Made by a program: the position numbers and the translations under genes
Shown here: in pieces, positions 22,464-46,466 of the stretch
How the letters are laid out: every line of letters starts with the position of its first letter
How positions within the stretch are numbered: position 1 is the stretch's first letter
The notes under the pieces: generated by a model
Told to the model about the DNA's origin: nothing
The model's database searches: none
Seen by the model: only the letters and a program-made list of their open reading frames with translations
Source of the DNA: Cupriavidus taiwanensis LMG 19424
Lineage (GTDB): Bacteria; Pseudomonadota; Gammaproteobacteria; Burkholderiales; Burkholderiaceae
Direction: 5' to 3'
NCBI RefSeq assembly: GCF_000069785.1
Contig: NC_010530.1
Location: forward strand, 490,001 to 554,000
Length of the DNA stretch: 64,000 nucleotides

Positions 22464-22483
22464 CATCGTCCGTTCAGCCTAGG
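22464..22483 (-). promoter_or_regulatory. Shared 20-bp LuxR-type element, copy 1 (luxR1)
   Basis: On the minus strand CCTAGGCTGAACGGACGATG. It shares CTAG, GGAC and CGATG with the other copies, matching the copy at 46447 at 14 of 20 positions. It overlaps the end of cysNC and lies 107 bases upstream of luxR1. Confidence 0.55.
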
Positions 22484-24401
22484 GCCTGTCCCTGAGCCAC
22501 GCCACGATCCGCTCCGCCGCCTGTTCGGCGCTGTCGCCGGTGGTGTCGATGCGGATTTCCGGGTGCTCGGGCGGCTCGTAGGGCGAGTCGATGCCGGTGA
22601 AGTTCTTCAGTTCACCGCGGCGCGCCTTGCGGTACAGGCCCTTGGGGTCGCGCTGCTCGGCCACCGCCAGCGGCGTGTCGATGAAGACCTCGATGAACTC
22701 GCCGTCGCCGGCCAGCGCGCGCGCCATCTCGCGTTCGGAGCGGAAGGGGGAAATGAACGACACCAGCACGATCAGCCCCGCGTCCAGCATCAGCCTGGCC
22801 ACTTCCGCCACGCGCCGGATGTTCTCGATGCGGTCCGCTTCAGAGAAGCCCAGGTCCTTGTTCAGGCCATGACGGACGTTGTCGCCATCGAGCAGATAGG
22901 TGTGGTGGCCGAGCGCGTGCAGGCGCTTTTCCACCAGGTTGGCGATGGTGGACTTGCCGGCGCCGGACAGTCCGGTAAACCAGACGATGCGCGGCGACTG
23001 GTGCTTGAGCGCGGCATGCGCGCGGCGATCGACGTCGATGGCCTGCCAGTGGACGTTCTGTGCCCGGCGCAGCGCAAAGTGCAGCATGCCGGCGCCGACC
23101 GTGTTGTTGGTCAGGCGGTCGATCAGGATAAAGCCGCCCAGCTCGCGATTGCGCGTGTACGGGTCGAACGCCACCGGCTGGTCCAGGTGCAGGTTGCACA
23201 CGCCGATCTCGTTCAGCTCCAGCGTGCGCGCGGCCAGGTGTTCGAGCGTATTGACGTTGACCTTGTACTTCGGCTGCGCCACGGTCACGCCCACGGTGCG
23301 CGTGCCCAGCTTGAGCAGGTAAGGACGTCCGGGCAGCATGGCGTCCTCGTTCATCCATACCAGCGTGGCCTCGAACTGGTCGGCCACCGCGGGCGGGTCT
23401 TCGGCGCAGGCCAGCACGTCGCCGCGGCTGACGTCGATCTCGTCGGCCAGGGTCAGCGTCACCGCCTGGCCGCGCATGGCCTGCTCGCATTCGGCGCCGG
23501 CGCCGACGATGCCGGTGACGCGGCTTTCGCGGCCGGAGGGTAGCGCGCGCACGCGGTCGCCACGCCGGATCACGCCGGCGCTGACCGTGCCGGCAAAGCC
23601 TCGGAAGTCCAGGTTGGGGCGGTTGACCCACTGCACCGGCAGCCGGAACGACTCGTCCTGCGCGGGCGCTTGGTCGATCGGCACGCTTTCCAGGTGGTCC
23701 ATCAGCGTCGGGCCCTGGTACCACGGCGTATTGGCGCTGGCTTCGGTGATATTGTCGCCGCGCAGCGCGGACATCGGGATGCAGACGATATCGGTCAGGC
23801 CGATCTGCCGCGCGAACTCGCGGTACTCCTTCTCGATGCGCGTATGGACTTCGCGCGAGTAATCCACCATGTCGAGCTTGTTGACTGCCAGCACCACGCG
23901 CCGGATGCCCAGCGTGGCCACCAGGTAGCTGTGGCGCCGCGTCTGCGTCTGCACGCCGCGGCGCGCGTCGACCAGCAGGATGGCCAGGTCGGCGGTGGAG
24001 GCGCCGGTGACCATGTTGCGCGTGTATTGCTCGTGCCCGGGGGTGTCGGCGACGATGAACTTGCGCTTGTCGGTGGCGAAGAAGCGGTAGGCCACGTCGA
24101 TGGTGATGCCCTGTTCGCGCTCGGCGGCCAGGCCGTCCACCAGCAGCGCAAAGTCCAGGTTCTCGCCCTGCGTGCCCATCTTCTTCGAGTCGGCCTCGAG
24201 CTGGGCCAGCTGGTCCTCGAACAGCATCTTCGATTCATACAGCAGGCGGCCGATCAGCGTGCTCTTGCCGTCGTCGACGCTGCCGCAGGTGATAAAGCGC
24301 AGCAGGCTCTTGCTTTGCTGGGCGCGCAGATATTGTGCGATCTCGCTCTGCGTCCCGACGGGTTGCGCCATTGCCGGCGCGTTGTCGATCAGGGTTTCCA
24401 T
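22479..24401 (-). CDS. cysNC: Bifunctional sulfate adenylyltransferase large subunit / APS kinase
   Basis: A 640-residue fusion of CysN and CysC (NodQ type). The CysN GTPase has GSVDDGKSTLIGRLLYESK near residue 37, DTPGHEQY and NKLD, followed by EF-Tu-like beta barrels. The APS kinase domain starts near residue 465 with P-loop GLSGAGKSTIAN and DGDNVRHGLNKDLGFS. With CysD it forms APS from ATP and sulfate using GTP hydrolysis, then phosphorylates APS to PAPS. The overlap TGATG with cysD indicates coupling. The fused kinase means the product is PAPS, the donor for the sulfotransferase encoded at 26619. Confidence 0.95.
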   Translation of the reverse strand: METLIDNAPAMAQPVGTQSEIAQYLRAQQSKSLLRFITCGSVDDGKSTLIGRLLYESKMLFEDQLAQLEADSKKMGTQGENLDFALLVDGLAAEREQGITIDVAYRFFATDKRKFIVADTPGHEQYTRNMVTGASTADLAILLVDARRGVQTQTRRHSYLVATLGIRRVVLAVNKLDMVDYSREVHTRIEKEYREFARQIGLTDIVCIPMSALRGDNITEASANTPWYQGPTLMDHLESVPIDQAPAQDESFRLPVQWVNRPNLDFRGFAGTVSAGVIRRGDRVRALPSGRESRVTGIVGAGAECEQAMRGQAVTLTLADEIDVSRGDVLACAEDPPAVADQFEATLVWMNEDAMLPGRPYLLKLGTRTVGVTVAQPKYKVNVNTLEHLAARTLELNEIGVCNLHLDQPVAFDPYTRNRELGGFILIDRLTNNTVGAGMLHFALRRAQNVHWQAIDVDRRAHAALKHQSPRIVWFTGLSGAGKSTIANLVEKRLHALGHHTYLLDGDNVRHGLNKDLGFSEADRIENIRRVAEVARLMLDAGLIVLVSFISPFRSEREMARALAGDGEFIEVFIDTPLAVAEQRDPKGLYRKARRGELKNFTGIDSPYEPPEHPEIRIDTTGDSAEQAAERIVAWLRDRP

Positions 24402-25297
24402 CAGAAGTATCCCTCCTGCTTCTTCTTCTCCATCGAACCGGCCGAATCGCTGTCGATCAGCCGCCCCTGGCGCTCCGACGTGGTCGCCCGCAGCATTTCC
24501 TGGATGATGCCGCCAAGCGTGTCGGCCTCGCTCTCGATTGCGCCGGTGAGCGGGTAGCAGCCCAGCGTGCGGAAGCGGACCTTGCGCAGTTGCGGCGTTT
24601 CACCAGGGCGCAGCGGCAGGCGCTCGTCATCGACCATGATCAGCGTGCCGTCGCGTTCGACGACAGGCCGTTCCCTGGCGAAGTACAGTGGCACGATGGG
24701 AATCTCGTTCAAATAGATGTACTGCCAGATATCGAGCTCGGTCCAGTTCGACAGCGGGAACACGCGCAGGCTCTCGCCCTTGCGCTTGCGCGTGTTGTAC
24801 TGGCGCCAGAGTTCGGGGCGCTGCATCTTGGGGTCCCAGCGGTGCTGCGCGGTGCGGACCGAGAACACGCGCTCCTTGGCGCGGGATTTCTCTTCATCGC
24901 GGCGCGCGCCGCCGAAGGCCGCGTCAAAGCCGTAGTGGTCCAGCGCCTGCTTCAGCCCCTGCGTCTTCCACACGTCGGTGTGGACAGCCGAGCCATGCTC
25001 GTGCGGGCTGATCTTGCGGGCCAGCCCTTCGGGGTTGATGTGCACGCGCAGGTCCAGCCCCAACCTGGCGGCGGTCTGGTCGCGGAACGCGATCATCTCG
25101 CGGAATTTCCACGTGGTATCGACATGCAGCAGCGGGAACGGCGGCCGCGCGGGATGGAAGGCTTTCATCGCCAGGTGCAGCATCACGGCGCTGTCCTTGC
25201 CGATGGAATAGAGCATGACGGGGTTTTCGCATTCCGCCACCACCTCCCGCATGATGTGGATGCTTTCCGCCTCCAGTTGCTCCAGGTGGGTCAACAT
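24401..25297 (-). CDS. cysD: Sulfate adenylyltransferase small subunit
   Basis: 298 residues, normal for CysD. The PP-loop SIGKDSAVMLHLAMKAF binds ATP; the DTTWKFREMIAFRD and FPLSNWTELDIWQYI segments are typical. It catalyses AMP transfer to sulfate together with CysN. The ATG at 25297 has AGAGGAG upstream. It is divergent from the DUF1214-like/sulfotransferase operon, and the shared 212-base gap holds two inverted copies of the LuxR-type element. No assimilatory cysH or cysIJ gene is nearby, so this looks like a dedicated sulfation set. Confidence 0.95.
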   Translation of the reverse strand: MLTHLEQLEAESIHIMREVVAECENPVMLYSIGKDSAVMLHLAMKAFHPARPPFPLLHVDTTWKFREMIAFRDQTAARLGLDLRVHINPEGLARKISPHEHGSAVHTDVWKTQGLKQALDHYGFDAAFGGARRDEEKSRAKERVFSVRTAQHRWDPKMQRPELWRQYNTRKRKGESLRVFPLSNWTELDIWQYIYLNEIPIVPLYFARERPVVERDGTLIMVDDERLPLRPGETPQLRKVRFRTLGCYPLTGAIESEADTLGGIIQEMLRATTSERQGRLIDSDSAGSMEKKKQEGYF

Positions 25298-25386
25298 CGG
25301 GGTCTCCTCTTGGTTTGCCGGCGCCGCGCAGGGTTGTCGCGGCCGTCTGGCATGGAGCAAAGGTAGCGAGCCGGGGGCCTGCGCCA

Positions 25387-25406
25387 CTTCGTCCGGGCGG
25401 ACTAAG
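25387..25406 (-). promoter_or_regulatory. Shared 20-bp LuxR-type element, copy 2 (cysD)
   Basis: On the minus strand CTTAGTCCGCCCGGACGAAG, with the dyad GTCC-N4-GGAC. It lies 90 bases upstream of the cysD start and mirrors copy 3, their centres being 45 bp apart. Confidence 0.65.
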
Positions 25407-46317: not shown

Positions 46318-46378
46318 CTCTGCTCCTTTGCGAAAGGTTCGTCCCCGCGCAGAGGGTGCGGCCAGCGCACGGCCCGCA

Positions 46379-46398
46379 CATCACTCGTTCGGACTACC
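46379..46398 (-). promoter_or_regulatory. Shared 20-bp LuxR-type element, copy 9 (lone SDR)
   Basis: On the minus strand GGTAGTCCGAACGAGTGATG, 61 bases upstream of the SDR start. Left half TAGTCCG and right half GATG agree; the centre is divergent. Confidence 0.45.
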
Positions 46399-46446
46399 CC
46401 GGGCCGCGCCCGCGGGGCGGCCGGTAAGCCCGGCGTGGCGATACCG

Positions 46447-46466
46447 GCTAGTCCGCCAGGACGATG
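46447..46466 (+). promoter_or_regulatory. Shared 20-bp LuxR-type element, copy 10 (hsaC-ipd operon)
   Basis: GCTAGTCCGCCAGGACGATG, the best copy, with the dyad GTCC-N4-GGAC. It lies 113 bases upstream of hsaC. With copy 9 it forms a divergent pair with centres about 68 bp apart. Confidence 0.65.

What the first reader, a model, noticed from the sequence alone, without database searches (positions are those of the whole stretch)
22464..46466. Ten copies of one 20-bp element link sulfate activation, a sulfotransferase operon and steroid-ring genes
Reading intergenic regions on both strands gives a shared element with consensus about nCTAGTCCnnnCRGACGATG and a core dyad GTCC-N4-GGAC in the best copies. 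Copies lie at 22464(-), 25387(-), 25432(+), 32739(-), 32818(-), 32880(+), 34695(+), 36090(+), 46379(-) and 46447(+). Each sits about 60-190 bases upstream of a gene start and in the matching orientation. The genes are luxR1, cysD, the DUF1214/sulfotransferase operon, the SDR/esterase/RibBA operon, luxR2, the LLM gene, the hsaA-kstD operon, a lone SDR and the hsaC-ipd operon. The two LuxR-type proteins are the obvious candidates to bind it.
Basis: seen in the sequence. Interest (0 to 1): 0.88.

Follow-up and report, generated by a model that had tools for sequence, protein, structure and literature searches.

The report
Steroid-switch DNA box controls sulfation genes
A short mirror-image DNA box sits at a fixed distance in front of steroid-breakdown genes and of a set of sulfate-transfer genes in this soil bacterium, and is very probably the landing site of a known type of steroid-responsive switch protein.

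Summary
The element is real. Eight of the ten listed copies stand; one (46379) is decayed; one (32880) is a different conserved palindrome; 32818 fits the other strand (luxR2) better. More copies lie outside the window (kshA, sulfatase, thiolase). The full form is a 20-bp palindrome, CATMGTCC-N4-GGACGATG, with a -10-like hexamer usually 19-21 nt after it, so its centre falls near -42.5, the class II activator position. It occurs in 77 of 79 loci holding a homologue of the window's LuxR proteins. Exact copies average 5.4 per genome in 82 LuxR-positive genomes and 0.7 in 316 others. All 80 HsaA-positive genomes among the 398 carry the LuxR. A Comamonas-type genome whose regulator is 97% identical to TeiR, the known testosterone regulator, has the box before hsaA and hsaC. 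The surprise is the regulon: it includes a sulfation cycle (CysD-CysNC, a sulfotransferase, and a DHH protein whose best fold match is a PAP phosphatase). Binding, steroid response and the sulfated substrate are inferred.

The parts
21218..22357 (-). luxR1, TeiR/TesR-type LuxR regulator
   Evidence: GerE domain 23.2 bits, just under the 23.5 cut-off; 52% identical to luxR2
22464..22483 (-). box before luxR1 (106 bp), hexamer TACGAT
   Evidence: 22.0 bits
22479..24401 (-). cysNC: sulfate adenylyltransferase subunit fused to APS kinase
   Evidence: Pfam GTP_EFTU and APS_kinase
24401..25297 (-). cysD
   Evidence: PAPS_reduct family; start is my call
25387..25406 (-). box before cysD (89 bp), hexamer TACCTT
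   Evidence: 22.0 bits; box before cysD in 11 of 12 loci
25432..25451 (+). box before the DUF1214-sulfotransferase operon (58 bp), hexamer TATCGT
   Evidence: 23.6 bits; 11 of 12 loci
25510..26622 (+). DUF1214 protein
   Evidence: Pfam DUF1214
26619..27794 (+). PAPS-type sulfotransferase
   Evidence: Sulfotransfer_3, 142.6 bits; PDB matches 2zq5, 2z6v
27823..28614 (+). SDR oxidoreductase
28634..29608 (+). DHH-type protein, probable PAP phosphatase
   Evidence: AlphaFold model pLDDT 94.5; best fold match PAP phosphatase 8a8k, TM 0.74; no Pfam family at any E-value up to 10
29744..32665 (-). SDR, esterase and RibBA operon
32739..32758 (-). box before the SDR operon (73 bp), hexamer TACAAG
   Evidence: 14.1 bits, weakest accepted site; box in 16 of 16 loci
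32818..32837 (+). box before luxR2 (232 bp), hexamer GACGAT on + strand
   Evidence: 17.2 bits on +, 23.9 on - but with no hexamer in place on -; conserved in Cupriavidus
32878..32887 (.). AGACTAGTCC, separate conserved palindrome (GGACTAGTCC in relatives), possibly an autorepression site
   Evidence: 13 of 13 Cupriavidus luxR2 loci; not a box copy (-5.0 bits)
33070..34269 (+). luxR2, TeiR/TesR-type LuxR regulator
   Evidence: GerE 29.8 bits; 39% identical to TeiR
34695..34714 (+). box before LLM (116 bp), hexamer CACACT
   Evidence: 30.9 bits; 37 of 39 loci
34831..35979 (+). LLM, luciferase-like monooxygenase
   Evidence: Bac_luciferase
36090..36109 (+). box before the hsaA-kstD operon (66 bp), hexamer AAACAT
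   Evidence: 28.7 bits; 38 of 47 loci
36176..37369 (+). hsaA-like monooxygenase subunit
   Evidence: NF045629 378.1 bits, under its 450 cut-off; start inferred
37394..39148 (+). kstD-like 3-ketosteroid dehydrogenase
   Evidence: NF005882 583.9 bits, under its 788 cut-off
45451..46317 (-). lone SDR
46379..46398 (-). decayed box before the lone SDR (61 bp)
   Evidence: 12.7 bits, below threshold; box in 10 of 24 loci with this SDR
46447..46466 (+). box before hsaC (113 bp), hexamer AAGAAT
   Evidence: 22.8 bits; 12 of 14 loci
46580..47476 (+). hsaC-like extradiol dioxygenase
   Evidence: NF045631 299 bits, under its 450 cut-off

Best explanation
The element is the operator of TeiR/TesR-type LuxR regulators. 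A dimer of LuxR1, LuxR2 or the third paralogue (C3:558803) binds the palindrome CATMGTCC-N4-GGACGATG, centred near -42.5, beside RNA polymerase, and switches on steroid-ring genes, LLM, an SDR-esterase-RibBA operon, two of its own regulator genes and a sulfation module. Its LasR/GAF-like N-terminal domain probably senses a steroid or a breakdown product. In the module CysD-CysNC make PAPS, the sulfotransferase passes sulfate to a substrate, probably steroid-derived, and the DHH protein probably removes PAP. Shown from sequence: the box, its spacing to a -10-like hexamer, its conservation, and its co-occurrence with the LuxR family and HsaA. Inferred: binding, activation, ligand, and the sulfated substrate (the last is the weakest step, about 0.4).
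For: Box in 77 of 79 loci around LuxR homologues; 268 hits against 3 for the reversed matrix at 15 bits. Hexamer 19-21 nt downstream in 58 of 81 sites and 23 of 48 in further stretches. Top of 17,408 unseeded 5-bp dyads, among those seen 6 times or more, in 400 kb of seven other genomes. Exact pattern 5.39 per LuxR-positive genome (82) against 0.69 (316). All 80 HsaA genomes are LuxR-positive. Regulator of G488 is 97% identical to TeiR, with the box before its HsaA and HsaC; TeiR and luxR2 share the HTH stretch NTARAHLR-x-IFSKTGV. LasR-ligand-domain-like fold. PAPS module.
Against: No binding or expression data. 15 of 316 LuxR-negative genomes have 3 or more copies; of four looked at, two have no LuxR at E 1e-8 and two only 23-26% ones. 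No box directly before the regulator gene in 11 of 12 distant loci, TeiR-like G488 included, so autoregulation is not general. Two near loci, L111 and L119, lack the box. A review passage describes TeiR as a polar membrane kinase. The Vibrio plasmid cysD has no box. The DHH family is large and not limited to steroid degraders.
Confidence: 0.85

Rival explanations
1. The box is bound by another regulator inherited with the steroid genes; the LuxR proteins act elsewhere or through a kinase cascade.
For: A passage in PMC6678751 reports TeiR as a membrane protein with kinase activity; 15 of 316 genomes without a close LuxR have 3 or more copies.
Against: Box counts follow LuxR presence, the loci were chosen by LuxR alone, and the box is a LuxR-sized palindrome at the class II position.
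Confidence: 0.08
2. The box is a promoter element for an unusual sigma factor rather than an activator site.
For: Fixed spacing to the -10-like hexamer.
Against: It is a palindrome, perfect in some loci and scoring on both strands in 26 places; the downstream hexamer is sigma-70-like.
Confidence: 0.04
3. The sulfation genes serve sulfur supply or another pathway and share the box only because they lie in the cluster.
For: No sulfated steroid is known from these strains in what I read; the sulfotransferase is missing in 7 of 28 LuxR-positive Cupriavidus.
Against: cysD and DUF1214 each have their own box in 11 of 12 loci; the sulfotransferase is in 0 of 31 LuxR-negative Cupriavidus; the same genes lie together in Tsukamurella.
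Confidence: 0.2
4. Chance similarity of intergenic sequences.
For: Two of ten listed copies fail or are poor; the loose pattern is not selective genome-wide.
Against: 0 of 100 shuffles; 268 against 3 in relatives; top dyad in other genomes.
Confidence: 0.01

Closest known systems
TeiR (Comamonas testosteroni ATCC 11996) / TesR (TA441), LuxR-type testosterone regulators
   Same: Full-length homology (39% to luxR2) and the same HTH stretch; sits among steroid genes; a 97% TeiR-like genome has the same box.
   Different: Three paralogues here; the regulon includes a sulfation module; TeiR is described as a membrane kinase, not tested here.
Quorum-sensing LuxR/LasR regulators and the lux box
   Different: An extra PAS-like domain, different operator, no evidence for homoserine-lactone sensing.
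KstR regulon of mycobacteria
   Same: Palindromic operator controlling steroid genes; a KstR site is listed at Rv3531c/Rv3532 (PMC1995591 passages).
   Different: KstR is a TetR-type repressor with another operator sequence.
pdc cluster of Caenibius tardaugens (progesterone LLM beside a LuxR gene)
   Same: LLM gene next to a LuxR gene (PMC12239570 passages); the Novosphingobium pNL2 LLM beside its LuxR is 66% identical to the window's LLM.
   Different: Only a weak box (11.9 bits) before the pNL2 LLM.

Membership tests
TeiR/TesR-type steroid regulators | LuxR-type C-terminal HTH | tested here: met
   GerE 29.8 bits for luxR2; 23.2 for luxR1, just under the 23.5 cut-off
TeiR/TesR-type steroid regulators | Homology to TeiR over the whole protein | tested here: met
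   39% identity, HTH stretch NTARAHLR-x-IFSKTGV shared
TeiR/TesR-type steroid regulators | Encoded with and co-occurring with 9,10-seco pathway genes | tested here: met
   all 80 HsaA genomes among the 82 LuxR genomes of 398
TeiR/TesR-type steroid regulators | Needed for steroid induction and growth on testosterone | not testable with these tools
   needs deletions
TeiR/TesR-type steroid regulators | Membrane location and kinase activity reported for TeiR | not tested
   reported in a review passage
Quorum-sensing LuxR | Binds an acyl-homoserine lactone | not tested
   only a fold comparison of the first domain
KstR-type TetR repressors | TetR-type regulator | tested here: not met
   the window regulators are LuxR-type
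PAPS sulfotransferases | Sulfotransferase family domain | tested here: met
   Sulfotransfer_3 142.6 bits over a cut-off of 27
PAP phosphatase (DHH family) | DHH-type fold | tested here: met
   best match 8a8k, E 6.8e-13, TM 0.74, followed by RecJ
PAP phosphatase (DHH family) | Hydrolyses PAP | not testable with these tools
   RecJ and NrnA-type enzymes also match

The most novel reading that the evidence does not exclude
Steroid degraders of several phyla run a dedicated sulfation cycle as part of ring breakdown: a DUF1214 protein, an SDR and a PAPS sulfotransferase act on a steroid intermediate, with PAPS made and PAP removed by genes under the same steroid switch (TeiR-type LuxR here, possibly KstR in mycobacteria). 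Sulfate would serve as a leaving or tagging group, a step not described in what I searched.
Probability: 0.33. Interest if true: 0.85.

Novelty: new variant of a known kind. Interest (0 to 1): 0.66.

Why it matters
TeiR was described in 2004 as required for testosterone degradation (citation seen), but in the listings and passages seen here no operator for it is given. A defined box with fixed promoter spacing makes its targets predictable in many genomes. It also places a sulfotransferase, a PAPS supply and a likely PAP phosphatase in a steroid regulon, which turns the question of what such a sulfotransferase does among steroid genes into a direct experiment in a harmless laboratory strain.

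Tried and rejected
Chance: rejected. 32880 as a copy: rejected. 59276: 19.8 bits with the second matrix but by eye an SDR coding stretch; treated as a false positive. 49656 (15.4 bits) not followed. C3:451334, 607224 and 642159: unexplained.

Low-stringency whole-genome pattern: not selective. The dyad search on the 79 near loci was swamped by related and low-complexity sequence, so only the far set is used. Sequence searches did not name the DHH protein; the fold search did. Novosphingobium pNL2: best box only 11.9 bits, with 3 reversed-control hits at 11 bits or more; inconclusive.

Literature: 0 papers held sulfotransferase, steroid degradation and Cupriavidus together; searches listed nothing that I recognised as a TeiR/TesR operator or a sulfation step in steroid degradation. 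Only listings and passages were seen, and only the open-licence library was searched.
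Full report
SETTING. The window is C3:490001-554000 of a 6.48 Mb genome in three contigs. Its closest named protein relatives are Cupriavidus. From the contig sizes I recall C. taiwanensis LMG 19424; no call confirms the strain.

OBSERVATION. The stated pattern gives 7 matches at up to 3 mismatches against 0.91 expected. A second matrix, from 65 distinct 20-mers in loci of other genomes, recovers 8 of 10 listed copies at 14 bits or more and misses 46379 (12.7) and 32880 (-5.0). 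In 464 kb of own genome held, the 53 kb core has 12 oriented hits at 17 bits or more, one of them the likely coding hit 59276; the other 411 kb has 5 (both strands of 451334, plus 607224, 642159 and 1402983). The reversed matrix has none at 17.

TRUE FORM. In relatives the box is a palindrome, CATMGTCC-N4-GGACGATG, perfect in L103 at 9829. The promoter-side arm is the better conserved. In 79 loci the first matrix gives 268 hits at 15 bits against 3 for its reverse, in 77 loci; L111 and L119 lack it. An unseeded search for 5-bp dyads in 400 kb of seven other genomes ranks TCGTC-N6-GACGA, the middle of the box, first of 17,408 by z score among dyads seen at least 6 times: 12 against 0.9 expected.

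SPACING. The best -10-like hexamer starts 19-21 nt after the 20-mer in 58 of 81 non-redundant sites, about 6 expected if uniform, and in 23 of 48 sites of the further stretches, 3.3 expected. Five sites of the second set come from G192, which appears to be the same genome as L118 of the first set, so it is not wholly independent. A hexamer at -12 puts the dyad centre at -42.5, the class II position (rule recalled). Window hexamers: TACGAT (22464), TACCTT (25387), TATCGT (25432), TACAAG (32739), GACGAT (32818 on +), CACACT (34695), AAACAT (36090), AAGAAT (46447).

GENES BEHIND THE BOX. Box at 14 bits or more, 20-350 bp upstream on the right strand, best tblastn hit per locus, over 103 loci: LLM 37 of 39, HsaA 38 of 47, HsaC 12 of 14, cysD 11 of 12, DUF1214 11 of 12, SDR of the esterase operon 16 of 16, esterase 34 of 52, lone SDR 10 of 24, KshA 3 of 9, luxR2 query 53 of 90, luxR1 query 53 of 89 (largely the same genes), KstD 1 of 45, sulfotransferase 0 of 12 (the last two are operon-internal in the window). 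The reversed matrix gave 0 in every row. Of 12 distant loci for the luxR2 query, only one (L152) has a box before the regulator gene, so autoregulation is not general.

WHO BINDS IT. The genome has three close paralogues: luxR2, luxR1 (52%) and C3:558803 (52%). Of 398 genomes of the family, 82 carry a homologue at E 1e-40 or better. The exact pattern TMRTCCNNNNRGACGATG averages 5.39 copies in the 82 and 0.69 in the other 316; 80 of 82 against 15 of 316 have three or more (counts retyped by hand). Within Cupriavidus it is 5.5 (28 genomes) against 1.1 (31). HsaA at E 1e-100 is in 80 of 398, all 80 LuxR-positive; the two LuxR genomes without it are G192 and G390, the latter 78% complete. In 300 genomes of the order, HsaA is in 4; the two outside the family (G488, G636) also carry the LuxR at 39-42%.

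LINK TO A PROVEN REGULATOR. The regulator of G488 is 97% identical to Q6URL0, TeiR of C. testosteroni. That genome has boxes before HsaA (25.8 bits, 110 bp) and HsaC (23.7 bits, 79 bp). TeiR is 39% identical to luxR2. A review passage says TesR/TeiR is needed to induce most steroid genes (PMC6678751). Another passage says tesR-like genes were reported only in C. testosteroni (PMC6895838); argue otherwise. Outside Burkholderiales: on a Vibrio alfacsensis plasmid (LuxR 40%) the box lies 96 bp before the HsaA homologue (22.0 bits), and on a Sphingobium plasmid (LuxR 37%) 54 bp before the annotated kshA (21.2 bits). That kshA counted as a miss; I did not find out why.

SULFATION MODULE. cysD-cysNC, with an APS kinase domain, is divergent from DUF1214-sulfotransferase-SDR-DHH; each side has its own box. 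Elsewhere the genome has another CysN-like gene without the kinase part (51%) and a lone APS-kinase-like stretch on C2 (59%). The DHH model matches a PAP phosphatase first (8a8k, E 6.8e-13, TM 0.74), then RecJ and NrnA-type enzymes; at least 7,813 homologues exist (capped), so it is not steroid-specific. A sulfatase at C3:561684 also has a box. The sulfotransferase is in 21 of 60 Cupriavidus genomes; of 59 shared with the family set, 21 of 28 LuxR-positive and 0 of 31 LuxR-negative. In two other genera, G177 has the box 60 bp before DUF1214, followed by the sulfotransferase, and G101 has one 238 bp before cysD, though none before its DUF1214. On a Tsukamurella plasmid (Actinomycetota) all five genes lie together: DUF1214 32%, sulfotransferase 32%, SDR 37%, CysD 50%, CysNC 50%. 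In mycobacteria a KstR site is listed at Rv3531c/Rv3532 (PMC1995591 passages) and Rv3529c is called sulfotransferase Stf1 (PMC8882603 passage). That Rv3531c-Rv3529c is the same module is recalled, not tested.

LIMITS. Nothing here shows binding, induction or chemistry. Near loci share ancestry, so counts are not independent events. Gene starts are my calls. Only passages of papers were read.

VERDICT. The box is real and the proposed binder is well supported. New here: an operator and its spacing for TeiR-type regulators, and a sulfation cycle inside a steroid regulon.

Noticed in passing
window 32878-32887: AGACTAGTCC, GGACTAGTCC in 13 of 13 Cupriavidus luxR2 loci, about 60 bp past the luxR2 box start and just after its predicted start of transcription; possible autorepression site.
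   Followed up: partly
window about 32990: A TATAAT hexamer upstream of luxR2, kept in most of the aligned Cupriavidus, suggests a second, ordinary promoter for luxR2.
   Followed up: no
window 29744-30832: RibBA (riboflavin synthesis) lies in a box-controlled operon; it could supply flavin to the flavoenzymes of the pathway.
   Followed up: partly
L058-L063, L066-L068: Relatives carry a further LuxR (67-70% to luxR2) near hsaC; the window has only about 260 bp between the lone SDR and hsaC, so it seems lost here.
   Followed up: partly
C3:451334 (L017 1334): Strong box (21.1 bits) with TACGAT at the right spacing after a TetR-type gene, but no clear gene downstream on that strand.
   Followed up: no
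L164 31000-33400: Vibrio alfacsensis steroid plasmid also carries cysD and cysN about 13 kb from its LuxR gene, without a box before cysD.
   Followed up: partly
15 genomes without a close LuxR, e.g. G100, G277: Three or more exact box copies although no LuxR homologue was found at E 1e-40; four were looked at, two with none at E 1e-8.
   Followed up: partly
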